Assembly (NCBI RefSeq): GCF_964019385.1
Contig: NC_088645.1
Coordinates: 20,139,158 to 20,203,157 of the forward strand
Direction: 5' to 3'
DNA: 64,000 nt
Origin: Sycon ciliatum
Taxonomy: Eukaryota; Porifera; Calcarea; Leucosolenida; Sycettidae
Position numbers and translations under genes: made by a program
Notes under the pieces: generated by a model
Told to the model about the DNA's origin: nothing
The model's database searches: none
What the model saw: the letters and a program-made list of their open reading frames with translations, nothing else
In this document: positions 8,411-48,600 of the stretch, in pieces
Layout of the letters: each line of letters starts with the position of its first letter
Numbering within the stretch: position 1 is the stretch's first letter

Positions 8411-9566
8411 TACGGGACAGGTACGGGATAGCGCCAGGCATGTCGATGGCACACACAAACAAAAATATTGTGGCCAGCTGTCTTTGCTGGTACGGTACAG
8501 TACTGGACAGATACTGGATAGCGCCAGGCGTGACACAAACAAACAAACAAACAAACAAACACACACACAAATACCAAACGAGGGAGCTTGGAAGTTCAGG
8601 GCCCTGCGCTATGCTTGGTTGCCTAGCTCATCGTGCATGTTGGTAGAACTGATGGAAATGTTTTTTCCTTTGATTAGCTACATCATTGTATTGCAAAAAC
8701 GTTTCAATGAGATACTGAAGTAACGTCTTCTGCATAGCTATGGAACCGGCGCTGACTCTGCCGATCACGGGCGTTCTGGAGTCGACGGGATGTCTGTCCT
8801 GACCTTTCCTGGGACCGGCGCTGACTCTGCCGATCACGGGCGTTCTTCTTCGTATTATTATTATACTGACGGCTACTAACATCCATTCTGATTGCATTTA
8901 CTCGTCTCCCTACTTCGTATTTCTTTCCAGAAAATCTCTCCATACAGCAGGGAGTCGTTTACATAATAATTATGACTCCCTTCTATACATCTACATGACT
9001 GTATATACGTTATAATAATTTATTATGCTATCGGCCTACATGCGATTCCCGGGCTGGTCGACAGGCGGCCCAGCCAGCCTGCTAGTGGGATCTCGGCCTC
9101 GCACACAAATCCACACAAAACGTTGCTGCACTGAATGCATTTCCCCGATACACTTCGCATATATACGGATTCTCTCGTTGGTACCGTACTCTTTATGGTA
9201 CGGGACAGGTACGGGATAGCGCCAGGCATGTCGATGGCACAAACAAACAAAACTATTGTGGCCAGCTGTCTTTGCTGGTACGGTACAGTACGGGACAGAT
9301 ACGGGATAGCGCCAGGCGTGACACAAACAAACAAACAAACAAACAAACAAACAAAAACCAAATTAAAGCTGTGAGGACCCTGGCTAGCGCCAGACGTTAC
9401 TGAAGTAACGTCTTCTGCATAGCTACGGGAACTAAGCTGTGTGGACCCTGGCTAGCGCCAGACGTTACCGAAGTTACGTCTTCTGCATAGCTACGGGAAT
9501 TGAAGTGTTGTGGACCCTGGCTATCGCCAGACGTTACTGAAGTAACGTCTTCTGCATAGCTACGGG
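8411..9566 (+). repeat. Composite repeat family A, copy 2 (right part) and copy 3
   Basis: The repeat interrupted at 4566 resumes here with TACGGGACAGG. A further head-to-tail unit starts at about 8578 (GAGGGAGCTTGGAAGTTC). A (CAAA)n run lies at 9322-9356 and three 69-bp palindrome units at about 9361-9565. One palindrome has two substitutions, in its two arms (ACC...GTT), which weaken the stem. Confidence 0.78.
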
Positions 9567-9957
9567 AACGAGAGAGCTTGGAAGCTCAGGGCCCTACGCT
9601 ATGCTTTTTTGCCTTGATGACCTAGACAAAAATAAAAGCATAGGGATGTTAACAATTCTTTAAAAAATTCCTTTCTTTTAAGACATATTAAACCTGGGAT
9701 TCGAACCCGCACTATCGCGCCCTGCATGCATCCCCCGGTCTTTAAAAAAATGCTTTTTTTAAGACATAACCTGGGATTCGAACCCGCACTATCGCGCCAT
9801 ACATGCATTCCCCCATACACTTCGCATTCATACCCATTCTTCCAAGTTGCTTCACGTTTGAAAGCCCTATTTGAATATGCATTGTGTTCAGCCGTCTTTG
9901 ATGGTACGGTACGGTAGGGATAGGTACGGCACGTCTTTGTGGTCCACTTCACAACAA
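9567..9957 (+). repeat. Repeat family B, left part
   Basis: This copy begins with the same GAGAGAGCTTGGAAGCTCAGGGCCC head as family A but then diverges (GCCTTGATGACCTAG). It contains CCTGGGATTCGAACCCGCACT twice (about 9697 and 9771), the reverse complement of a tRNA T-arm/B-box-like sequence (GGTTCGAATCC). The copy is cut near 9930; matching downstream sequence reappears at about 15700. About 5.8 kb, including the Harbinger element, therefore separates its halves. Confidence 0.65.
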
Positions 9958-10308: not shown

Positions 10309-10346
10309 TTGAGCATCGCCCAGCACAAGTGTTCTGATTTATTACC

Positions 10347-11744
10347 TTGTGTTTTGATGCAGTATGCCACTTCTTTGAATTCAGAATGGGTGTTGACAGG
10401 AGGAAGTGGATGTTGGCAAAGTTGAAATTCAAAATTCGTACCCCTGCATTCAGGGCAAGCTCCCTCGCTGAAGACTTTTGGCCAAGAGAAAGTGAATCTG
10501 TGGCCTGGGAAATTCCTAATTTAATTTCAGTTCGCCGCCGCCGTCGCCGTTCTCGTGCCAGAAACCTTCTTTGGGAGCTCCTGCATCCCAAAATAGTGGA
10601 CAACGTAACTGCCAACCGACGATTCTGGTCCACCAATGTCGGATGCCCAGGATTCTTTGAGAAAAGGGTGAAGGGACGATGGCTGGAAGTCATGCAAGCG
10701 TTGCAGAAGGCAGGGAAGCAGGATGACGCAGAGGACTACTTGGATAGGCAGTATGTTAAAACATTCCGTGTCAGCAAACCTCTGTTTGATGCAATTTACA
10801 CCGACACACATGCTCTCTGGGAGAAGTCGGATACTGCATTCCGTTGCGCCGTGAGCTCGGAGAAGAGGCTTGCCATGTTATTGTATTGGCTGGCTCACGC
10901 TACCACGCAGGACGAGCTTGCGAATCTCTTTGGCGTGGGACAGTCGACTGTGCATGGGATTCTGCACGACGGTGTAGACACGTTGGCTGTCCACCTTGGC
11001 AAGAAGTCAATTGTTTTTCCGAAAGGAGAAGATCTGAAGCGGGTCATTAGCGGCTTCAAGCGCATCTGCAAGCTACCAATGTGCGCTGGCGCCATTGACG
11101 GCACGTTTATGAAAATAATAAAGCCATCAGTATGGGGGGACTCATACTGGTGCTACAAGTCGTATCCCGCAATTATTATTCTTGCTGTCGTGGATGCCGA
11201 TGGCATATTCACGTATGTGGATGTTGGCCGAGCAGGCTCGCTCGGCGATGCGTATACCTTCAATAACAGCAGTTTGAAAAGGAAGTTACAGACTCGATCG
11301 TGGTTGCAATCCACAACGAAACTGATTTCTGGCCACCGTATCAAGCCCTATTTACTGGCAGACTCTGCATTTGGAGCTTCGGAACACGTTGTCAAGGCGT
11401 ATAAGCACCCACCCCAGCCTGGACAGCAAGCCACCTTCAACTCTGCTGTCAACAAAGGTCGCAAGGTGGTCGAGCAAGCATTTGGTAGACTTAAGGGTCG
11501 TTTTGCTGTCCTAACAAGAAGCTTTGTGAGGGACCCAGAGTTTGCTGCCCGCGTAGCTTTGCTGTGCAGTGCTTTGCACAATATGTGCACTCGTGGCAAT
11601 GTTGAGTTCTTCGATTCTTGGTTGCCAGATCGTGCTGAGTACACGGGAGATGGTGAACAGGCAGCGGACGCCAACAATGGAGCAGGAGGAAGTGCTGAAG
11701 TTGTTCGGAAGGCGCTGACAACGTACATCCATATGCTGCGCTAG
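10347..11744 (+). CDS. Harbinger (HARBI1-like) DDE transposase
   Basis: The frame has 465 codons. An Arg-rich stretch near residues 63-70 is followed by a helix-turn-helix-like segment (ELANLFGVGQSTVHGIL) and a DDE_Tnp_4-type nuclease core. The core has first Asp in GAIDGTFM (D251), second Asp in GSLGDAYTF (D301), conserved Asp in LLADSAFG (D339) and catalytic Glu in VVEQAFGRLKGRF (E376). These are the landmarks of HARBI1/PIF transposases, which cut and paste the element at TWA sites. The ATG at 10347 is the first in frame; ATG at 10386 is an alternative, and TGATGCAG just upstream could be a splice acceptor from an unseen 5' exon. No in-frame stop or frameshift interrupts the core. Confidence 0.92.
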   Translation: MCFDAVCHFFEFRMGVDRRKWMLAKLKFKIRTPAFRASSLAEDFWPRESESVAWEIPNLISVRRRRRRSRARNLLWELLHPKIVDNVTANRRFWSTNVGCPGFFEKRVKGRWLEVMQALQKAGKQDDAEDYLDRQYVKTFRVSKPLFDAIYTDTHALWEKSDTAFRCAVSSEKRLAMLLYWLAHATTQDELANLFGVGQSTVHGILHDGVDTLAVHLGKKSIVFPKGEDLKRVISGFKRICKLPMCAGAIDGTFMKIIKPSVWGDSYWCYKSYPAIIILAVVDADGIFTYVDVGRAGSLGDAYTFNNSSLKRKLQTRSWLQSTTKLISGHRIKPYLLADSAFGASEHVVKAYKHPPQPGQQATFNSAVNKGRKVVEQAFGRLKGRFAVLTRSFVRDPEFAARVALLCSALHNMCTRGNVEFFDSWLPDRAEYTGDGEQAADANNGAGGSAEVVRKALTTYIHMLR

Positions 11745-15960: not shown

Positions 15961-16441
15961 TCAGATACGGGATAGCGCCAGGCGTGACACAAACAAACAA
16001 ACAAACAAACAAACACACAAACAAATACCAAACGAGAGAGCTTGGAAGCTCAGGGCCCTGCGCTAAGTTTTGTTGCCTAGCTCCTCGTTCATGTTGTTAG
16101 AACTGATGGAAATGCTTTTTCCTTTGATAAGCTGCCTCATTGTATTGCAAAAACGCTTCAATGAGATACTGAAGTAACGTCTCCTGCATAGCTATGGGAC
16201 CGGCGCTGACTCTGCCGATCACGGGTGTTCTGGAGTCGACGGAATGTCTGTCCTGACGTTTCCTGGGACCGGCGCTGACTCTGCCGATCACGGGAGTTTA
16301 TCTTCTTCTTATTATTATACTGACGGCAAGTAACATCCATTCTGATTGAATTTACTCGTCTCCCTACTTCGTATTTCTTTCCAGAAAATCTCTCCATACA
16401 GCAGGGAGTCATTTACATAATATGACTCCCTGCTATACATC

Positions 16442-16519
16442 TACATGACTGTATAAACGTTATAACGTTTATAAACGTTATAACGTTTATAAACGTTATA
16501 ACGTTTATACAGTCATGTA
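16442..16519. repeat. Perfect 78-bp palindrome
   Basis: TACATGACTGTAT at the left is the exact reverse complement of ATACAGTCATGTA at the right. Between them are three copies of the self-complementary 18-mer AAACGTTATAACGTTTAT. Checked base by base from both ends, the palindrome is perfect. In other family A copies this position reads GTATATACGTTATAATTATT, so the palindrome arose locally. Confidence 0.93.
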
Positions 16520-17549
16520 TCTAGACCAGCCTGCTAGTGGGATCTCGGCCTCGCACACAAATCCACACAAAATGTTACTGCACTGAATGCATTCCCCCGA
16601 TACACTTCGCATATATACTCATTCTCTTGTTGGTACCGTACTCTTGATGGTACGGGACAGGTACGGGATAGCGCCAGGCATGTCGATGGCACAAACAAAC
16701 AAAAATATTGTGGCCAGCTGTCTTTGCTGGTACAGTACAGTACGGGACAGATAAGGGATAGCGCCAGGCGTGACACAAACAAACAAACACACAAACACAC
16801 AAATACCAAATTAAAGCTGTGTGGACCCTGGCTAGCGCCAGACGTTACTGAAGTAACGTCTTCTGCAGAGCTACGGGAATTAAAGCTGTGTGGACCCTGG
16901 CTAGCGCCAGACGTTACTGAAGTAACGTCCTCTGCATAGCTACGGGAACGAGAGAGCTTGGAAGCTCAGGGCCCTGCGCTATGCTTTGTTGCCTAGCTCA
17001 TCGTGCATGTTGTTAGAACTGATGGAAATGCTTTTTCCTTTGATTAGCTACATCATTGTTTTCCAAAAACGTTTCAATGAGATACTGAAGTACAAGTAAC
17101 GTCTTCTGCATAGCTATGGGACCGGCGCTGACTCTGCCGATGACGGGCGTTCTGGAGTCGACGGGATGTCTGTCCTGACGTTTCCTGGGACCGGCGCTGA
17201 CTCTGCCGATCACGGGCGTTCTTCTTCTTCTTCTTATTATTATACTGACGGCAACTAACATCCATTCTGAATGCATTTACTCGTCTCCCTACTTCGTATT
17301 TCTTTCCAGAAAATCTCCCCATACAGCAAGGAGTCGTTTACATAATATGACTCCCTGCTATACATCTACATGACTGACTTGTCAGTTTGAGCACTCTGGC
17401 AAGGTACGTTCTGGCCTGATTGGAAATTTTCATTTTCATTGCTATCAGGTTCGGCCTCATTTTCTCTGTGCTGCGCTGATGAGTTCAAAAAGAACGAAAC
17501 AGCATGCTGTCCGCAGATTGAGTGACTGTATATACGTTATAATTATTAT

Positions 17550-17831
17550 CAAGAGTACATAACCCCCCAGAGTGTGCAACGCCGATCCAGCTCTGTGTAG
17601 GGTCTTGGTCGAGCGAAATCGGATCTTCTGATGTCATGCGTACACCTCACACCCGCGGAAGGCCGGTCTCGAGGCAGGGCACCATTGTTTTTGATCCAAG
17701 AGTACCCGCGACTTCCCGGGTTCTCCTCGGATGTGTACGGTATTATGACGCAAAGATCCGATTCCGCTCGACCAAGACCCTATGCAGAGCTGGATCAGGC
17801 GTTGCACACTCTGGGGGGTTATGTACTCTTG
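17550..17831. mobile_element. Fold-back (long-TIR) element, copy 1
   Basis: The left end CAAGAGTACATAACCCCCC and right end GGGGGGTTATGTACTCTTG are inverted repeats that stay similar for about 80 bp, through the GGTCTTGGTCGAGCG segment. It is inserted in a family A unit with TTATTAT on each side (17543-17549 and 17832-17838). The length is 282 bp and nothing in it looks coding. A second copy lies at 28842-29119. Confidence 0.85.
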
Positions 17832-19489
17832 TTATTATGCTATCGGCCTACATGCGATTTCCGGGCTGGTCGACAGGCGGCCCAGCCAGCCTGCTAGTGG
17901 GATCTCGGCCTCGCACACAAATCCACACAAAATTTAATGTTACTGCACTGACTGCATTCCCCCCATACACTTCGCATATATACTCATTCTCTTGATGGTA
18001 CCGTACTCTTGATGGTACGGGACAGGTACGGGTTAGCGCCAGGCATGTCGATGGCACAAACAAACAAAAATATTGTGGCCAGCTGTCTTTGCTGGTACGG
18101 TACAGTACGGGATAGATACAGGATAGCGCCAGGCGTGACACAAACAAACAAACACACAAAAAAACACCAAACGAGAGAGCTTGGAAGCTCAGGGCCCTGC
18201 GCTATGCTTTGTTGCCTAGCTCATCGTGCATGTTGGTGGAACTGATGGAAATGCTTTTTCCTTTGATTAGCTACATCATTGTATTGCAAAAACAGTTTAA
18301 TGAGATACTGAAGTAACGTCTTCTGCATAGCTATGGGACCGGCGCTGACTCTGCCGATCACGGGCGTTCTGGAGTCGACGGGATGTCTGTCCTGACGTTT
18401 CCTGGGACCGGCGCTGACTCTGCCGATCACGGGCGTTCTTCTTCTTCTTATTATTATTATACTGACGGCAACTAACATCCATTCTGATTGTATTTACTCG
18501 TCTCCCTACTTCGTATTTCTTTCCATACAGCAGGGAGTCGTTTACATAATAATTATGACTCCCTGCTATACATCTACATGACTGTATATACGTTATAATT
18601 ATTATGCTATCGGCCTACATGTGATTCCCGGGCTGGTCGACAGGCGGCCCAGCCAGCCTGCTAGTGGGATCTCGGCCTCGCACACAAATCCACACAAAAT
18701 GTTACTGCACTGAATGCATTCCCCCGATACACTTCGCATATATACTCATTCTCTTGTTGGTACCGTACCCTTGATGGTACGGGACAGGTACGGGATAGCG
18801 CCAGGCATTTCGATGGCACAAACAAACAAAAATATCGGGGCCAGCTGTCTTTGCTAGTACGGTACAGTACGGGACAGATACGGGATAGCGCCAGGCGTGA
18901 CACAAACAAACAAACAAACAAACAAATAAACAAACAAACAAACAAACACCAAATTAAAGCTGTGTGGACCCTGGCTAGCGCCAGACGTTACTGAAGTAAC
19001 GTCTTCTGCATAGCTACGGGAATTAAAGCTGTGTGGACCCTGGCTAGCGCCAGACGTTACTGAAGTAACGTCTTCTGCATAGCTACGGGAATAAACTTAA
19101 TTTGAAGCCCTCATTGCCTCACCTTGTAGAGTTTCCTGAAGCACCACAGCTTTAGCGATACCAGTATCCCAGAAGAAGTGGAGCAGCAACTCCTGACGCC
19201 ACTGAAAATCATTAGAAAATAGCGATTAATAAGTGAGGACTGCTACGTCCGCACTGATACTGAACTTCACACCGGCAGATAGTAGACCACCTCTTTTATC
19301 ACTCAGAACATGTCACCGATTTTTGGTTTTCTTGAGGTACCCATATCTGACATTTTTCCACTCCATTGTGCTGAAGAACGGCCAAACTCTCTCATGCACG
19401 GGAGAGCGCGAAGCTCCGTCCGATCTGAAACCTCTACTCCAAACCCCGGAACAAAGTGTGTTAGTGACTCTCAATAAGATAAGTTATAC

Positions 19490-21677: not shown

Positions 21678-23089
21678 TCACACCCAACTGGCTGCAGTTG
21701 TTGGTGTGACTTCATCGTACACAGGGCTAGCCTGGAGTATAACTTGATCACTCGGCGCCAGACCACGCAGTGGAGATACTTGACAAAGGACCTGATGGTA
21801 GGGGATAGGAAGTACCGAATCCGTCGGTGCACGTCTATCAGCTTGAGGGAATTGGCAGTTGCCTACAGCTGGGAGGTGATATCCAGCCGAAAGGGAAGTT
21901 AATCCCTGCTTGGTTGTGCTGCAAACGTCCATACCTTCATAACAGTGGTCGGAGATATTGGACGACCTTTCTGTGTGCTGACCACCAGGCACGGATGAAC
22001 ACGGATCAGTCCCACTACATAGAATGTTGTCCATGCTGCGACATCTTTTCTTCTGCCTTGTGGATGGGTCAACGCGTCCGCCATGCCGTTGTGGCAGTGG
22101 TTTATGCAACACTGTTGCCGCAGCGGTTGGTCTGACCAATCGTGAGACATCTGTGCCAGTTTTCTTCGTAGGAACAGATGTTCCAGACATCTCTATGTCC
22201 CTTGACAGTGGACGACTCTCTGAGTCTAACCGTTTAGGAAGCAGGTCGAAGTATGGCACCATTTGCCTTGGACTGGATTGTTGCGAGTCGTTAGTGCCAG
22301 TTGCCGTACTATGATATTCCAAGTCATCTATTTCGTACAGGCGAGGTGAATTGGCAGCTGTGCCCTTCTGCAACATGCTGTGGGCGGCACTTTTAGGCCC
22401 TGATTTGGATACATTGTCGCCTCTGGCAAGACCTCTGATCTTCGTGCATGGCCTTACCTCCAAGCCGCCACATTCAGGTCCAACTGCATCAGTGACATGC
22501 TCCTGTTCCTCGACCTCGTAATGAGACTTTTGATTAGCTGGGCATACTACACACGACGCATCCACCAGTTGTGCTTGGTTTTCTTCACCTTGGCTTATAT
22601 GACCATGCTTCTCGCTGACGCTACTTGGGCGTGCGTGCTTGTTTCCCTCCAAGCCACCATTCGTGCGCTTGAATTGTCCTGTATCGGTGAGCACTGGAGC
22701 TGGCTGGCTACCATAGTCGTAGTGCTGAGTGCTGTGAACATCTGCAGAACATGCACCGGGAGCGTTTTTTGTAGACGTACTTTTACGTGTCACGTGACTG
22801 TGCTCTTCGGACGACGACGCTTGGTCCTGGCATGGTGCGCATAGAGAGGACAAGTATGGCTCATTTTCACAATCGGCAAGGCAAGGGGCGGCGGAATCTG
22901 GTGACGGCGGTGATATGGAGACCTTTTGAGGGTTGATTTTAGTGTTCAAGTTCTGGGCATGGAGTTGTCTGCTGACGCGCATGTACTGGCGTCCCAACAA
23001 GATGAGCATAATCGATAGGAGAACGGTCGAAAGCACAAGTGCACAGCCTATAGTCAGGACCAGGCCACTCGAGCACAGCGATCCAGTTC
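21678..23089 (-). CDS. Single-pass membrane protein, TM and cytoplasmic tail exon
   Basis: The minus-strand frame is open for 470 codons and ends in TGA at 21678-21680. A good acceptor (TTTCTGTGCAATTAG|GAACTGG) puts the exon start at 23089, phase 1. The product begins with a hydrophobic span of about 23 residues (LVLTIGCALVLSTVLLSIML...), followed by basic residues (GRQYMRVSRQ) and a polar tail of over 400 residues. That order predicts a type I receptor with a cytoplasmic tail. The tail has Tyr motifs suited to SH2 docking (RLYEID, HYEVEE, CYEGMD, VYDEVT). I recognise no catalytic domain. A signal-peptide exon of matching phase lies upstream at 24158-24293; ectodomain exons between the two are unresolved. 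Confidence 0.55.
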
Positions 23090-24157
23090 CTAATTGCACA
23101 GAAACAAGGCCACAAAGAAATAAATGTCACCTCGCCACCTGTTCACATATAGATGGAATTACACAAAGCATAGCAATGTGCACTTTCATGGAAAAAAATA
23201 GAAGATTACTGCACAACAGGTCCTGACCACATCACCTGAGCAAAATGCAGCTCCCTAAATTCTTCGACGGTCTTTTTCTTTATATGAAAGGAATCAGAAC
23301 ATGATCCTCACTGGTAAAGGGTCGCTGTATTCCATTCACGCCAGACAAAATCTTCACGGAACCAGTTTCATCATGACCAGCCGGCGGTGCGCTTTTCATA
23401 GGAGTCAAGGTAGTAACAGAACACGCTGGACATGTGCTAGACTTCTGCAAGGTTATGGTGTTTTTTTTTATTGTGTCTACCTTTATGAGTCGCCCGCTCG
23501 TCAGCTAATGGAGTGTCTGTTTCAACACAACGCATCCTAGGAAAGGTTCTCCAGGTGCAGAATTGCGATTCGTATGGTAGCACACTGTGAAATTGGCGTT
23601 CTAACGCTTACTGCCTATGATAGTGCAGAACTCGATTACCGAGACTTTGAAATTCTTCCGTGATCTTCTTCATCCTCATGATGATATTGTATAATTATAT
23701 GGGTTTGATTTTTTTTCTACAACGCTACCAGCTTTTGAATGAAATTCAGTTCTGGATTGCAGCATGGAGAGCCACAAAAGAAAACCACTCCAACTACATA
23801 TTTTTTATATTACCGGCTTGTGCCTGTTCAAATTCCCATTGGGCATAAAGTATGCAACCGACGTTATGCACCTAATCAGCGCTGTAGACGTGCAGAGCTC
23901 TTGACGGTCTGGAAGTGGTGCGAATGCTTCAGAGCATACACACCTGCACCATCAATACACTACCCTCGGCAACGCAAATGATTTTCCTTGTAATGAGACC
24001 TGTTGCAGCCCACCAGCTCTGTTAGATTTCACCTAGCGAAACCGTGTGGATGGTACCACTGCAATTGCACTTGATACTGGGACGCCAATCCCGTTTAGAT
24101 TACCGAAATGGAACGGTCATCATCATAATGGTCATCATCACACGCATATGGACTTAC

Positions 24158-28841: not shown

Positions 28842-29119
28842 AGTACATAACCCCCAGAGTGTGCAACGCCGATCCAGCTCTGCACAGGGTCTTGGTCGAG
28901 CGGAATCGGATCTTCTGATGTCATGCGTACACTCCACACCAGCGCAAGGCCGGTCTCGAGGCAGGGTACCATTGTTTTCGATCCAAGAGCACCCGCGGCT
29001 CCCCGGGTTCCCCTCCGATGTGTACGGTATTATGACGCAAAGATCCGATTACGCTCGACCAAGACCCTATGCAGAGCTGGATCAAGCGTTGCACACTCTG
29101 GGGGATTATGTACTCTTGA
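28842..29119. mobile_element. Fold-back element, copy 2
   Basis: This copy is close to that at 17550-17831 along its whole length (AGTACATAACCCCCAGAGTG... ...CTCTGGGGGATTATGTACT). The left terminus has lost the CAAG tip. The strong similarity of the two unlinked copies points to fairly recent transposition. Confidence 0.85.
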
Positions 29120-29599
29120 TAACACTGTAATAGTACATAGATACATATCAAGGGAGTTTCCTGAAGGGGTGGATGAGATGAAAGGGAAATGAAAAGGGAC
29201 AAGAGAAATACGTAGCAGAAACACTGCTCAAGAAAACTACAGGAAAACACTGCAGGGTTAAATAGATATTACATAAAAAGCTCTAGATGCGAATATCACG
29301 GATTCCGGCCGTGGAGAATTACTACTTAAAAAATTAAGTAATGGCCCACTAGGCGAAACCGGAACTTAGCAGAAGATCGCCCCCTGCCTAAGCTCTCAGG
29401 GAGCTTGTTCCAGACAACTGATAACCGAAAAGAGGATATTTAACCAAACGCCTTGCTAAGTAGGAACGACACCACCCTCTTGGATCAAGGCGCAAATGCA
29501 GCTCCTGAGCGGTGGGAGGTGAGTAGATCAGACCCACTCCAAAGTGGTCAAAGACCGAAATCCCATTCAATGCATCCATGTGGGTGGTGGCGTTCCTGC

Positions 29600-29851: not shown

Positions 29852-30794
29852 TCTCACCATGCCTCCCCTTGCAGTACTCTCTTTGTTTCTCTCCTTATTA
29901 TTCAGTTCGACGTGGTCGGCCACCGCCCGACTTCTCATATCTCTTAATTTGCTGGCCGAAAATCCTATATATAGGATTTGAAAATGTGTGCCTTTTATGC
30001 CGTTGTTATTGGTCATCACGACCAATAATAACGACATAATGGTTTTCATGGAAGTTGTAAATATGTTTGAGGCATGAATGTTTACATTTTAGATTCATAG
30101 GGCGATAATATTTCTGATGAATACCTATTTTCCGCAATTATTGGAAATTTGAGCATAATTAATAGTGTTCAGCTGCTGTCATGGAAAGGACTGAAGCAGT
30201 GAATGTGCAGAAGAACATTACAGGTGTGGCACGGGGTGGCTTCATGACGACATATCGCACATGCCGTCATGAAACTACCAATTGTAAGGATAAAACGAGG
30301 TCCAATAAAATCTCTAATCCTTTATTATAATTATAGGATTCGAAAAATAGGGCACAGGCCTTAGTAATACTGGGCAAGGAGATGAGCCTGAGATGTTAGT
30401 GTTTAAAAAAATTATCTTATTCAACTCTCGATATCTACTAAGACCTAGCAAGGAAGAATTGGTCACATGCCTTTTGTTATTCTCATGCCACACCCATTTT
30501 GAGATGAAAAATATGACCACAATCCTATACAAAATCCTATAGGATTTAGCAAATTAAGTATATTGGCAGTCTTCTGACGAGCCAGGAGATGTTGAATTAA
30601 TAATAATGATAATACGAAATAGAGGTTGCGACTTCGGCGATGATTTTGTTTAGGAATGGGTTTGCTCCCACACTGGAGCTCGCGCTATTCTGCCGACGAC
30701 TTGACACTTGACTGACTCACGACTGCCATCCAGAGAACACGAGAAGTCCATCGAACCTTCGACTCGGCAAACCTGCAAGAAAGCACCACTCCCT

Positions 30795-30840
30795 GCTCAA
30801 TACACAGTGTTTCGGGGAATTCACCCCTCATCAGTTGAGC
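30795..30840 (-). ncRNA. Hammerhead ribozyme, inverted copy
   Basis: On the minus strand: stem I strand GCTCAA, core CTGATGA, stem II GGGG-TGAATT-CCCC, GAAA, short stem III ACAC-T-GTGT, then the cleavage base A and stem I partner TTGAGC. The predicted cut lies between 30801 and 30800. All conserved core positions are present. Confidence 0.88.
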
Positions 30841-31280
30841 TTGAGTAGGCTGAGGAAGATTGTGCCTGAAGAGCACCACTTATATAGTGCTCTCCAGGCA
30901 CAAACATCACCAGGGATACAAACTTACAGAGACACTCCGTTTCCAGCGCTACAAACACCTCGTGAACACAAGATAGCAGCGTGAGTCAGTTATCGCTCCT
31001 GGACGGTGAGAACAGACTCTATTTCGTACTGTTGTGCCCAGCGCGGGCGTGCCACTAGCTGGTTTGGAGGTGACAGCGTTGTGAATGACCGAGGGTCCTC
31101 TACGTCTGTTCTCACCGTCCAGGAGCGATAACTGACTCACGCTGCTATCTTGTGTTCACGAGGTGTTTGTAGCGCTGGAAACGGAGTGTCTCTGTAAGTT
31201 TGTATCCCTGGTGATGTTTGTGCCTGGAGAGCACTATATAAGTGGTGCTCTTCAGGCACAATCTTCCTCAGCCTACTCAA

Positions 31281-31326
31281 GCTCAACTGATGAGGGGTGA
31301 ATTCCCCGAAACACTGTGTATTGAGC
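31281..31326 (+). ncRNA. Hammerhead ribozyme, direct copy 1
   Basis: Stem I is 31281-31286 with 31321-31326 (GCTCAA/TTGAGC, 6 of 6). The core CTGATGA is 31287-31293, stem II 31294-31297 with 31304-31307, GAAA 31308-31311, and stem III lies within 31311-31319. The predicted cut follows A31320 (GTA). Beyond an internal loop, CCTACTC upstream can pair with GAGTGG downstream and extend stem I, as in natural type I hammerheads with loop contacts. Confidence 0.92.
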
Positions 31327-31760
31327 AGGGAGTGGTGCTTTCTTGCAGGTTTGCCGAGTCGAAGGTTCGATGGACTTCTCGTGTTCTCTGGATGGCAGTC
31401 GTGAGTCAGTCAAGTGTCAAGACGTCGGCAGAATAGCGCGAGCTCCAGTGTGGGAGCAAACCCATTCCTAAACAAAATCATCGCCGAAGTCGCAACCTCT
31501 ATTTCGTACTGTTGTGCCCAGCGCGGGCGTGCGACTAGCTGGTTTGGAGGTGACAGCGTTGTGAATGACCGAGGGTCCTCTACGTCTGTTCTCACCGTCC
31601 AGGAGCAATAACTGACTCGCGCTGCTATCTTGTGTTCACGAGGTGTTTGTAGCGCTGGAAACGGAGTGTCTCTGTAAGTTTGTATCCCTGGTGATGTTTG
31701 TGCCTGGAGAGCACTATATAAGTGGTGCTCTTCAGGCACAATCTTCCTCAGCCTACTCAA

Positions 31761-31806
31761 GCTCAACTGATGAGGGGTGAATTCCCCGAAACACTGTGTA
31801 TTGAGC
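31761..31806 (+). ncRNA. Hammerhead ribozyme, direct copy 2
   Basis: Identical core and stems to copy 1, displaced exactly 480 bp; the predicted cut is 31800/31801. Cuts at copies 1 and 2 would release a 480-nt monomer. Confidence 0.92.
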
Positions 31807-32240
31807 AGGGAGTGGTGCTTTCTTGCAGGTTTGCCGAGTCGAAGGTTCGATGGACTTCTCGTGTTCTCTGGATGGCAGTCGTGAGTCAGTCAAGTGTCAA
31901 GTCGTCGGCAGAATAGCGCGAGCTCCAGTGTGGGAGCAAACCCATTCCTAAACAAAATCATCGCCAAAGTCGCAACCTCTATTTCGTACTGTTGTGCCCA
32001 GCGCGGGCGTGCGACTAGCTGGTTTGGAGGTGACAGCGTCGTGAATGACCGAGGGTCCTCTACGTCTGTTCTCACCGTCCAGGAGCGATAACTGACTCAC
32101 GCTGCTATCTTGTGTTCACGAGATGTTTGTAGCGCTGGAAACGGAGTGTCTCTGTAGGTTTGTATCCCTGGTGATGTTTGTGCCTGGAGAGCACTATATA
32201 AGTGGTGCTCTTCAGGCACAATCTTCCTCAGCCTACTCAA

Positions 32241-32286
32241 GCTCAACTGATGAGGGGTGAATTCCCCGAAACACTGTGTATTGAGC
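32241..32286 (+). ncRNA. Hammerhead ribozyme, direct copy 3
   Basis: Identical core and stems, displaced another 480 bp; the predicted cut is 32280/32281. The unit is cut short downstream at 32432 by a family A repeat. Confidence 0.92.
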
Positions 32287-32432
32287 AGGGAGTGGTGCTT
32301 TCTTGCAGGTTTGCCGAGTCGAAGGTTCGATGGACTTCTCGTGTTCTCTGGATGGCAGTCGTGAGTCAGTCAAGTGTCAAGTCGTCGGCAGAATAGCGCG
32401 AGCTCCAGTGTGGGAGCAAACCCATTCCTAAA

Positions 32433-33418
32433 CGAGAGAGCTTGGAAGCTCAGGGCCCTGCGCTATGCTTTGTTGCCTAGCTCATCGTGTATGTTGTTAG
32501 AACTGATGGAAATGCTTTTTCCTTTGATTAGCTACATCATTGTATTGCAAAAACGTTTCACTGAGATACTGAAGTCACGTCTTCTGCATAGCTATGGGAC
32601 CGGCGCTGACTCTGCCGATCACGGGCGTTCTGGAGTCAACGGGATGTCTGTCCTGACGTTTCCTGGGACCGGCGCTGACTCTGCCGATCACGGGCGTTCT
32701 TCTTCTTATTATTATTATACTGACGGCAACTAACATCCATCCTGATTGCATTTACTCGTCTCCCTACTTCGTATTTCTTTCCAGAAAATCTCCCCATACA
32801 GCAGGGAGTCGTTTACAGAATATGACACCCTGCTATACATCTACATGACTGTATATACGTTATAATTATTATGCTATCGGCCTATATGCGATTCCCGGGC
32901 TGGTCACCAGGCGGCCCAGCCAGCCAGCTAGTGGGATCTCGGCCTCGCACACAAATCCACACAAAATGTTACTGCACTGAATGCATTCCCCCGATACACT
33001 TCGCATATATACTCATTCTGTTGATGGTACCGTACTCTTGATGGTACGGGACAGGTAAGGGATAGCGCCAGGCATGTCGATGGCACAAACAAACAAAAAT
33101 ATTGTGGCCAGCTGTCTTCGCTGGTACGGTACAGTACGGGACAGATACGGGATAGCGCCAGGCGTGACACAAACAAACAAACAAACAAACAAAAAAACAA
33201 ACACCAAATTAAAGCTGTGTGGACCCTGGCTAGCGCCAGACGTTACTAAAGTAACGTCTTCTGCATAGCTACGGGAATTAAAGCTGTGTGGACCCTGGCT
33301 AGCGCCAGACGTTACTGAAGTAACGTCTTCTGCATAGCTACGGGAATTAAAGCTGTGTGGACCCTGGCTAGCGCCAGACGTTACTGAAGTAACGTCTTCT
33401 GCATAGCTACGGGAATAA
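32433..33418 (+). repeat. Composite repeat family A, copy after the ribozyme array
   Basis: A full module set from GAGAGAGCTTGGAAGCTC through the (CAAA)n run (about 33170-33203) and three 69-bp palindrome units (about 33207-33415). One palindrome reads GACGTTACT-AA-AGTAACGTC: the change is in the loop and the stem is kept. Confidence 0.8.
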
Positions 33419-33421
33419 AAA

Positions 33422-38099: not shown

Positions 38100-40032
38100 G
38101 ACGATAAAATGATGCTGCCCGCACACATCTAGGGAAACGCAAGAAGAAAATTAAAGAATGGATGACCGACGCTGTCCTGCGGCTATGTGACGCAAGGCGA
38201 GTGAAGACGTCGACCCGATACGAAAGTGATGTCTCCATGGCGGAATATTGCCAGGCATGCCGTGCAGTGAAGCGAGCGACCCGGAAAGCCAAAGCAGATT
38301 GGATTGAAGGAGCCTGCAAGGAGGTAGAGTGCGACCTTAAATTTAACAACACAAAAGAAGCCTACGAAACCATCAGGAGGCTGACAACGAAGCCCACTGT
38401 CAAATCTAATGTCATTGAGAACAAGGATGGAGAGCTACTTACGGAAAGTAAAAAAGTAGCCGATCGCTGGGCGGAGTATTGCTCCGACCTGTATACTTAC
38501 AACATCAACCCTGCCATGGAGGTACTGGATGATCTGGAGCTAGGAATGCCACTCAACGATGATGACAGAGATCTATCGATACTCAAGGAGGACGTAGCTG
38601 CTGTAGATAACTTGAAGGCAGGCAAGTCGCCCGTCGATGACATGATCCCAGGAGAGTTACTGAAAGAGGGTGGCGAATTCGTCATTGACGTACTGACTAC
38701 CATCTGTAACAAGATATGGTCGTCCGGCACGTGGCCACGGCAATGGTGCCGGTCAATCATGATTCCAATACCAAAGAACGGCAACCTCCGAAAGTGCACG
38801 AACTATCGCACCATCTCGTTGATAAGTCACCCTGGTAAAGTAATGTTGCGTGTTCTACTCAACCGTCTCACACCTTGCATCGAAGACCTATTGAGAGCGT
38901 TATGTAGACCATCAGAGACCCATCTATAACAATGTCATCCATTTTTGCAAGGCATTTGATAGAATGTGGCACGCATCCCTGTGGAAGATAATGCGCAAGT
39001 GTGGGCTTAGCCCGACCATCATCACACTGATCGAGTCCCTGTACCAGCAGTCCGAGAATGCTGTAAGAGTAGGAACAACGGTTAGCAGTTGGTTCCATGC
39101 CACCGTTGGCATTAGGCAAGGTTGCATGCTATCACCCTCTCTATTCAACATTTTCTTGGAAGAACTGGTATCTAGGTCATTGAAGGGATTCGCGGGTTCC
39201 ATTAGCATTGGTGGACGCATTTTAACAGGCCTGCGATTTGCAGATGACATTGATCTGGTGGCTGGCAGCGAGGGAGAACTGCAAGACGTTACTGGCCGGC
39301 TGGCTAGCACATCAAAATCATTCGGCATGGAAATCAGCACTGAGAAGAGTAAGCTACTGGTAACGGGAGCAAGCAGAGGTCTGTCCGCAAGCATAGCCAT
39401 CGAAGGGAAGGAGCTCAAGCAGGTTGACGAGTTTACATATCTGGGTAGCACGATTACTGATGATCAGCGTTCAATCAAAGAAGTGAGGAGTCGGATCGCA
39501 GCAGCCTCGGCTGCTGTTGCACGACTAGTAACAATCTGGAGGGATAGAAACATCAGAATCGGCTCGAAATATGTCTACTCAATGCTATTGTTTTATCCAT
39601 ATTCCTTTATGCTTGCCAGTCTTGGACCCTAACTGCTGAAATTTTGAAAAAGACCAAGGCTTTCGAAATGAGAAGCTATCGAAGTCTTCTCAGGATCCCG
39701 TTCCCTGATCACCAGACGAATGTGTCTGTTAGAGAGGAAGTAAATAGTATTCACAAACAAGTCCCACTTATTGGTTTTGTTCGTAGAAGGAAATCGCAAT
39801 TTTTTTGGTCATATTGTTTGTTCCGGCTGTTTGTCATTGACTGTTCTTCAGGGTTGTGTTGCTGGAGGTCGTGGCCGAGCCAGGCCCGGAATGTCGTGGC
39901 TTGATCATATTATTTCATGGACTGCACTTGACGTGCAGTCCCTGCTGCACGCGATCGATTTTTGTGGCGCTCGCTTGTTCATACTTGCTCTGTGACGCCC
40001 CGATGGCCTTAGGCTTATGATGATGATGATGA
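38100..40032 (+). pseudogene. RTE-like LINE reverse transcriptase, decayed
   Basis: The frame 38162-38929 covers the linker and fingers of a LINE ORF2 (YRTISLISHPGKVMLRVLLNRL). Then comes a deletion of roughly 40-50 codons where the GFR.GRST region should be, with a frame change. The palm resumes with FCKAFDRMWHASLW (motif A), VGIRQGCMLSPSLFNIF (motif B), GLRFADDIDLVAG (motif C, YXDD-type), and later EFTYLGSTITDD. Further stops follow, and the tail FFGHIVCSGCL...LDHIISWTAL is recognisable. The 3' end is (GAT)n at about 40018-40030, as expected for RTE-type elements. No AP endonuclease is seen, so it is 5' truncated. Confidence 0.85.
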
Positions 40033-47998: not shown

Positions 47999-48600
47999 TA
48001 TAGTGCTCTCCAGGCAAAAACATCACCAGGGATACAAGCTTAAAGAGACGCTCCGTTTCCAGCGTGACAAACTACTCGTGAACACCAGATGGCAGCGTGA
48101 GTCAGTGTCGCTCATGGAGGTGCTGAACAAGCGTCACAGTGTTGTCCCCCGGCGCGGGCTTAAGAATAAGTTGGTTTGGAGGCAACAACGTTGCGAATGG
48201 TCAACGGTCCTCAGCGCTTGTTCATCACCTCCATGAACCTCCATGAACGACAGTGACTCACGCTTCTATCTGGTGTTCACGAGGTATTTGTCACGCTGGA
48301 AAAGGAGCGTCTCTGTAAGTTTGCATCCCTGGTGATGTTTATGCCTGGAGAGCACTATAATAATTATAAGTGGTGCTCTTCAGGCACAATTTTCCTCAGC
48401 CTACTCAAGCTCAACTGATGAGGGGTGAATTCCACGAAACACTATGTATTGCGCAGGGAGTGGTGCTTTCTTGCAGACTTGCCGAGTAGACGATTCGATG
48501 GACTTCTCGTGTGTTCTGGATGGCGAGTCACTCAAGTGAGAATTCAAGGTGGCAGGAAAACCTCGAACTCCCATGTAGGCAGAACGCACTCTTCCCCTTT
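47999..48600 (+). mobile_element. Second hammerhead-repeat locus, diverged
   Basis: This has the same architecture as 30613-32432: an inverted partial copy (about 48001-48135), a loop, then one direct copy to about 48600. The AGAGCAC...GTGCTCTT hairpin and ribozyme region are conserved, but the body is clearly diverged and the inverted arm is too short to include a ribozyme. This is an older insertion of the same or a sister family. Confidence 0.82.
48409..48454 (+). ncRNA. Degenerate hammerhead ribozyme
   Basis: The core CTGATGA and GAAA are intact. Stem II has one mismatch (GGGG against CCAC) and stem I one mismatch (GCTCAA against TTGCGC). The loop of stem III differs from the 31-kb copies. 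Cleavage, if any, would fall at 48448/48449; activity is probably reduced. Confidence 0.72.

What the first reader, a model, noticed from the sequence alone, without database searches (positions are those of the whole stretch)
30613..32432. Tandem 480-nt repeat with a complete hammerhead ribozyme in every unit
Four ribozyme copies (three direct, one inverted) have every conserved core position: CTGATGA, GAAA, a GTA cleavage site, a perfect 6-bp stem I and a 4-bp stem II. The period is exactly 480 bp, so transcription through the array followed by self-cleavage would release uniform 480-nt linear RNAs able to circularise. Near-identity of units indicates a young expansion. Hammerheads are known in Penelope-like elements and retrozymes. 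Here no Penelope reverse transcriptase or GIY-YIG frame accompanies the unit, so this may be an undescribed non-autonomous ribozyme element.
Basis: partly seen in the sequence, partly recalled or inferred. Interest (0 to 1): 0.92.

Follow-up and report, generated by a model that had tools for sequence, protein, structure and literature searches.

The report
Sponge retrozyme with Penelope-style insertion ends
A sponge genome carries many copies of a small 480-letter mobile element with a hammerhead RNA-cutter in every unit, and its copies are inserted in the same two-sided way as Penelope retrotransposons, which links two groups of mobile elements that were only suspected to work together.

Summary
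In detail: three direct units (480, 480, 457 nt) and a 405-nt inverted arm, each with an intact type I hammerhead core. Rfam models do not detect it. The window is from the sponge Sycon ciliatum. The family is dispersed; I read 33 further loci.

Of these, 26 are two-armed. All 26 are head-to-head, with one end at unit position 480-495 and the other shorter (24 of 26 at 450-465). This is the tail signature of Penelope-like elements (PLEs), present here every time. Target duplications of 9 bp or more flank 9 of 13 insertions outside simple repeats (1 of 156 in crossed flanks). Three autonomous PLE insertions of the same genome show the same end pattern. Alleles found in two or more units of a locus are in all its units in 21 of 23 cases, so each insertion came from one 480-nt monomer.

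Best reading: a non-autonomous, retrozyme-like element whose monomeric, probably circular RNA is copied by a PLE enzyme from both cut target strands. Ribozyme activity, the RNA circle and the helper are inferred, not shown.

The parts
30588..30612 (.). Left target flank, 84% A+T, contains AATAATAAT
   Evidence: no target duplication is seen at this copy
30613..31017 (-). Inverted cDNA arm, unit positions 88 to 492; its outer end is site B (with tail)
   Evidence: differs from unit 1 at 1 position
30795..30840 (-). Type I hammerhead in the inverted arm
31017..31496 (+). Direct unit 1, 480 nt
31235..31242 (+). TATA-like TATATAAG upstream of the ribozyme (unit 219-226), in the loop region of a long hairpin; promoter role is inference
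   Evidence: sequence; fold
31281..31326 (+). Type I hammerhead, unit 1; expected cleavage after A31320
   Evidence: pattern
31497..31976 (+). Direct unit 2, 480 nt
31761..31806 (+). Type I hammerhead, unit 2
31456..31508 (+). Region of the two proposed start sites on the RNA, shown in unit 1: site A near unit 450-465 (31466-31481) in the most A+C-rich stretch of the unit, tail, then site B near unit 489-492 (31505-31508)
31977..32433 (+). Direct unit 3, ends at unit position 457 (site A)
32241..32286 (+). Type I hammerhead, unit 3
47999..48591 (+). Older copy, about 82% alike, also an inverted piece (47999 to about 48135) followed by a direct piece (about 48132 on); its hammerhead has a broken stem I and stem II pair

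Best explanation
A non-autonomous, retrozyme-like element of Sycon ciliatum that is mobilised in trans by a Penelope-like element. Proposed cycle: transcription of arrays; hammerhead cleavage into 480-nt monomers; ligation into circles; binding by a PLE reverse transcriptase/GIY-YIG endonuclease; staggered cutting of both strands of a target, often ATT-rich; each target 3' end primes its own cDNA, one from site A (about unit 455), the other from site B (about unit 490); a cDNA can run several times round the template; the two cDNA ends are joined head-to-head at a variable point. Shown by sequence: intact ribozyme cores, two head-to-head arms, one A end and one B end per two-armed insertion, target duplications, simple-repeat targets, and both arms coming from one monomer sequence. 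Inferred: transcription, cleavage, circularisation, the identity of the helper, priming by both target strands, and how the arms are joined.
For: 26 of 26 two-armed loci head-to-head with one end at 480-495 and the other shorter, 24 of 26 at 450-465, plus the window copy (492 and 457). Target duplications of 9 bp or more in 9 of 13 loci outside simple repeats against 1 of 156 crossed pairs. 13 of 26 in or beside simple repeats, 12 of them of the ATT type. Three two-armed PLE insertions of the same genome have the same layout, tails of 36-37 nt and duplications of about 8-10 bp. Site A lies in the most A+C-rich stretch of the unit, as the PLE start in an AC-rich stem-loop (PMC11167929). 21 of 23 multi-unit alleles are fixed in all units of their locus; arms reach 2793 nt. 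Core and spacing kept in 86 of 94 ribozyme copies. Circular monomer fold more stable than shuffles, z -3.4.
Against: No RNA, no cleavage and no helper activity was observed. Rfam does not score the ribozyme. The window copy has no target duplication; L024, L033, L034 and L039 have 0-7 bp. The short ends of L009 (425) and L033 (355) are off site A. Seven of 33 loci are one-armed by my cut-off. In vitro a PLE showed no strand difference in start site, and ribozyme mutants did not impair insertion (PMC11167929). Likeness between the unit and the start region of the PLEs is weak: 4 of 1000 shuffles reach the score with one PLE family, 333 of 1000 with the other, for which another part of the unit scores higher. 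L017 is mosaic for one allele (2 of 3 units).
Confidence: 0.75

Rival explanations
1. Same PLE-type insertion, but the template is a linear multimeric transcript of an existing array and not a circle; the ribozyme is dispensable for insertion.
For: Inner cDNA ends are not enriched at the ribozyme cut (2 of 54 within 10 nt, 2.25 expected); in vitro a PLE inserted RNA with an inactive ribozyme (PMC11167929).
Against: Locus alleles present in two or more units are in all covering units in 21 of 23 cases, 13 of them in loci where both arms cover the site; a linear transcript of an array that carries unit-private changes should give mosaics. Very young source arrays would weaken this argument.
Confidence: 0.2
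2. The second arm arises by self-priming (fold-back) on a single cDNA or antisense RNA, as suggested for rotifer Penelope elements, not by priming from the second target strand.
For: Head-to-head arms are the layout for which self-priming was proposed (PMC3846280, passages read).
Against: In L030 (arms 1-455 and 409-489) and L035 (arms 13-450 and 347-492) neither arm contains the other; and one A end plus one B end in 26 of 26 loci is not expected from copying one arm.
Confidence: 0.06
3. Mobilisation by a LINE with twin priming, which also makes 5' inversions.
For: A LINE-type reverse transcriptase frame lies in the window (38895-39632); twin priming is recalled from general knowledge.
Against: Twin priming is not expected to give two outer ends at two fixed internal RNA sites every time; the genome's own PLEs do.
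Confidence: 0.06
4. A DNA-level satellite with an inversion, or an assembly artefact.
For: A tandem of near-identical units; the window copy lacks a target duplication.
Against: Dispersed insertions on many contigs with target duplications and one end pattern; an older copy in the same window has the same layout with arms that have diverged from each other.
Confidence: 0.02

Closest known systems
Metazoan non-LTR retrozymes (PMC7229834; abstract, text parts 1-3 of 6 and discussion read)
   Same: Type I hammerhead in short direct repeats, no coding frame found in the unit, no PLE protein beside it, dimer to multimer arrays, target duplications, proposed circular RNA template, proposed PLE helper
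   Different: 480-nt unit (described RNAs about 170-400 nt), 52% G+C (described below 50%), two head-to-head arms with A/B ends; the parts that I read mention no inverted arms
Penelope-like elements (PMC3846280 passages; PMC11167929 parts 1-2 of 4 and passages)
   Same: Head-to-head arms, 30-40-nt tail, two start sites on the RNA, AC-rich start region, ATT-rich targets, target duplications of about 8-10 bp, hammerhead near the terminal repeat
   Different: No reverse transcriptase or GIY-YIG frame; fuller hammerhead than the minimal ones of the Sycon PLEs; the tail is in every two-armed copy here, while it is called optional for PLEs
Plant LTR retrozymes (as described in PMC7229834 and PMC11722881 passages)
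   Same: Non-autonomous, ribozyme in the repeat, circular RNA intermediate
   Different: Type III hammerhead in LTRs with PBS and PPT, 4-bp target duplications
228-nt hammerhead repeat of the same genome
   Same: Tandem units with a type I hammerhead in the same sponge
   Different: Rfam HH9-like ribozyme, one-way arrays in the two read, right end 11-14 nt past the ribozyme cut

Membership tests
Metazoan non-LTR retrozyme | Type I hammerhead in every unit of short direct repeats | tested here: met
Metazoan non-LTR retrozyme | Non-autonomous, no coding frame for its own movement | tested here: met
   one 159-aa antisense frame, no Pfam match
Metazoan non-LTR retrozyme | Described size (about 170-400 nt) and G+C below 50% | tested here: not met
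   480 nt, 52% G+C. These are described ranges; because they are not met I call it retrozyme-like, a variant, not a member in the strict published sense
Metazoan non-LTR retrozyme | Expressed as linear and circular RNA | not testable with these tools
   no RNA data; one search gives indirect support only
Metazoan non-LTR retrozyme | Self-cleavage activity | not testable with these tools
   core intact; Rfam does not score it
Penelope-like element | Encodes reverse transcriptase, in canonical members with GIY-YIG | tested here: not met
   hence not filed as a PLE
Penelope-like element (mode of insertion only) | Head-to-head arms and tail at one end | tested here: met
   26 of 26 two-armed loci
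Penelope-like element (mode of insertion only) | Target duplications and AT-rich or ATT targets | tested here: met
   9 of 13 loci outside simple repeats with 9 bp or more; 13 of 26 in simple repeats; not at the window copy itself
Penelope-like element (mode of insertion only) | Start module on the RNA shared with the helper | tested here: inconclusive
   4 of 1000 shuffles with one PLE family, 333 of 1000 with the other
Rfam hammerhead families | Match to a covariance model | tested here: not met

The most novel reading that the evidence does not exclude
Retrozymes of this kind are circular-RNA parasites of PLEs, and PLE-type insertion is a two-sided reaction in which the two target strands start on the RNA at two different fixed sites, so that every complete insertion is a head-to-head pair with exactly one tail. 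The same sponge has a second, 228-nt ribozyme repeat that inserts one way, so such elements use at least two different helpers.
Probability: 0.55. Interest if true: 0.85.

Novelty: new variant of a known kind. Interest (0 to 1): 0.72.

Why it matters
Which enzyme moves animal retrozymes is open: PMC7229834 names PLEs only as strong candidates. This genome gives many fresh insertions whose ends, target duplications and layout match its own PLEs, and whose unit alleles point to a monomer template. It also turns the PLE tail from an optional feature into what looks like a rule, one per two-armed insertion, which is a direct test for models of PLE integration.

Tried and rejected
Searches for the unit or core in phage records, in bacterial and archaeal genome contigs (24-base pattern) and in viral contigs (26-base pattern) gave nothing. 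The ubiquitin-hydrolase frame found no relative. C2:42.72-42.80 Mb, where unit copies recur, looked at first like an autonomous partner; I read four stretches (L042-L045) that cover four of its six copies and listed ORFs in one of them (L042), which showed no obvious PLE frame. These look like one old insertion in a larger repeated segment and were left out of the 33-locus counts. The like position of the inner joint in the window copy and the 48-kb copy looked like an inherited joint, but inner ends are spread over the unit with only a mild hot spot at 74-127 (12 of 54 against 6.1, P 0.015, range chosen after looking); the coincidence stays unexplained. A first nhmmer run failed for a file-format reason and was repeated. 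Seven of the 33 loci were one-armed by my cut-off (segments of 25 nt or more) and are not in the end counts: L018, L027, L031, L036, L037, L038, L040; L038 shows by eye a tiny second arm ending at site B. The longer arm is not always the one with the tail.

Full report
WHAT IS THERE. The array is as described: direct units 31017-31496, 31497-31976 and 31977-32433 and an inverted arm 30613-31017. Each holds a type I hammerhead with all core positions, a 6-bp stem I, a 4-bp stem II and a 3-bp stem III. A descriptor that demands core and all three stems finds these four and one unrelated site in 64 kb; 200 shuffles give 0.01 per window. Rfam does not see it: no match at gathering threshold in the window, and no hammerhead match at E up to 10 in 3,001 bases or in 141 bases. 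The unrelated site at 17471-17516 is matched by the Rfam HH9 model at E 1e-5, below its gathering score. The 480-nt unit thus has a variant that the Rfam models do not cover, or a weak one; activity is untested.

WHERE IT IS. A 482-residue frame at 21678-23126 is 100% identical over 98% to a protein named for Sycon ciliatum on a contig of 46,714,003 bases. That is the length of contig C3 of the window's own assembly, on which the window lies. I take the window to be Sycon ciliatum, a calcareous sponge (class recalled).

THE FAMILY. A search of the own genome gave 128 matches in the 40 candidates scored of 2173, so the copy number is a lower bound. I fetched 33 loci besides the window (L009-L041) and four stretches of a cluster on C2 (L042-L045), which hold every place of that table except two of the six copies of the cluster. 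In L009-L045, 94 ribozyme copies were extracted: 70 are identical to the window core, 86 keep core and spacing, 82 of these also keep all three stems, 8 have a changed core or spacing. Of 69 aligned units (300 nt or longer and 97% or more alike; the window's four included), many are identical to the family consensus, so the family is young.

LAYOUT AND ENDS. Of the 33 loci, 26 have two arms. In 26 of 26 the arms are head-to-head. In 26 of 26 one outer end is at unit position 480-495 (lowest L034, at 480) and the other is shorter: 24 at 450-465, L009 at 425, L033 at 355. The window copy (492 and 457) fits. None of the 26 has two long or two short ends; if ends were chosen independently this would have probability at most 0.5 to the power 26. 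Ends were extended by a rule that tolerates single mismatches, so single positions can be off by some bases (L016 may end at 457 and not at 465). Outside simple repeats, 9 of 13 loci have direct duplications of 9-13 bp within 8 bases of the ends; L024 has 0, L034 4, L033 6 and L039 7. Crossed flanks of different loci, with the same leeway, reach 9 bp in 1 of 156. The other 13 lie in or beside simple repeats, 12 of the ATT type. The window copy has no duplication; its left flank is 84% A+T, and its right flank begins with a dispersed repeat that recurs in the window. Arms reach 2793 nt, 5.8 units.

ONE MONOMER PER INSERTION. Alleles that differ from the family majority and occur in two or more units of a locus occur in all covering units in 21 of 23 cases, 13 of these in loci where both arms cover the site (segments of more than 40 nt and 95% or more alike, 8 nt trimmed at each end). 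The 23 come from 12 of the 34 loci, window included, and some are shared by two or more loci. The two partial ones are L016 (4 of 5; the fifth segment is probably a separate older insertion) and L017 (2 of 3). A further 117 are in a single unit. Both arms were thus copied from one monomer sequence; a circular template explains this best. Gene conversion is a weaker alternative, as unit-private differences persist in the window copy. Inner cDNA ends are spread over the unit and are not enriched at the ribozyme cut (2 of 54 within 10 nt, 2.25 expected), so few cDNAs ran off a ribozyme-made 5' end; that fits a circle or an uncut multimer. The circular monomer folds with z -3.4 against 60 shuffles, while its paired fraction is like that of the shuffles (0.68 against 0.67).

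THE GENOME'S OWN PLEs. A GIY-YIG search gave 13 matches (150 of 944 candidates scored). Frames of 807 and 749 residues match GIY-YIG; the second also matches a reverse transcriptase model below its curated cut-off (26.9 against 29.6 bits), the first does not. Ten of the 13 loci carry CTGATGA...GAAA, a hammerhead-like motif, downstream on the strand of the GIY-YIG match, by my reading with one extra base before stem II. I fetched seven of the 13 regions. Three have two readable ends (L059, L060, L064): all are head-to-head, with one end at a short site and the other 36-37 nt further on (counted on the printed ends), and have duplications of 10, 8-9 (imperfect) and 10 bp. L061 shows only a long end, in an (ATT)n tract. 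The element and the PLEs of this genome thus share the insertion style. Likeness of the start regions is weak: 4 of 1000 shuffles reach the score for one PLE family, 333 of 1000 for the other, and for the latter another part of the unit scores higher.

MECHANISM. Purified protein of an anole PLE cleaves and extends both target strands, prefers ATT, and starts at two adjacent internal sites of the RNA that bound the tail, the main one in an AC-rich stem-loop (PMC11167929, parts 1-2 of 4 and passages read). Here site A lies in the most A+C-rich stretch of the unit (80% against a mean of 44%). The simplest reading is that each end of a staggered cut primes its own cDNA, one at A and one at B, and the two are then joined. 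The same paper reports no difference of start site between strands and no effect of ribozyme mutants on insertion in vitro; the pattern here says that within one insertion the two sites differ. In L030 and L035 neither arm contains the other, which speaks against self-priming as suggested for rotifer Penelope (PMC3846280, passages read).

A CONTRAST IN THE SAME GENOME. The second hammerhead (17471-17516) lies in an insert of about 147 bp with a 5-bp duplication TGACT in a dispersed repeat; the empty form is seen in four other copies in the window. It belongs to a 228-bp family (87 matches, 40 of 463 candidates scored) with an HH9-like hammerhead (below gathering). In the two arrays read and in the window copy the right end lies 11-14 nt past the ribozyme cut, and the units point one way (the distance counted on the printed sequences). 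In the list one place shows both orientations; the query covered 147 of 228 bases, so short inverted arms may be missed. This looks like one-sided insertion by another helper.

NOVELTY. Metazoan retrozymes and hammerheads in PLEs are known, and PLE help for retrozymes has been proposed (PMC7229834, abstract, parts 1-3 of 6 and discussion read; PMC7761336, PMC6155905 and PMC11722881, passages read). I found no paper in the held library that describes such elements in sponges, or head-to-head retrozyme insertions with PLE ends. The library lacks most subscription journals, and the 2014 paper on PLE hammerheads is not held. New here: a 480-nt sponge family, its PLE-type ends in every two-armed copy read, and the one-monomer evidence.

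Noticed in passing
window 17376-17522; L066, L067: Fragment of a second, 228-bp hammerhead repeat family (HH9-like ribozyme) with a 5-bp target duplication; its arrays are one-way in the two read, unlike the 480-nt family.
   Followed up: partly
L064 3741-3802; L060 8614-8999: Old fragments of the 480-nt family lie beside two PLE insertions; the L064 fragment ends at unit 454 (site A) about 30 bases from the PLE end.
   Followed up: no
window 32434-33420 and about 16034-18950, 8580-9570, 35691: Dispersed composite repeat that starts GAGAGAGCTTGG and holds (ACAA)n and 69-bp tandem units; it begins exactly at the right end of the array, and AAC stands before it in 5 of the other 6 exact occurrences.
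   Followed up: partly
window 28842-29121 and 17544-17837: Inverted-repeat element, about 93% alike between the two places, self-complementary at about 76%.
   Followed up: no
window 10338-11744: Harbinger-like transposase frame (DDE_Tnp_4) without a stop, next to a 72-bp tandem repeat.
   Followed up: no
L042-L045 (C2:42.72-42.76 Mb): Single direct copies of the unit (457-480 then 1-463) recur at about 6.7-7 kb and longer spacing, as if one old insertion had been amplified with a larger segment.
   Followed up: no
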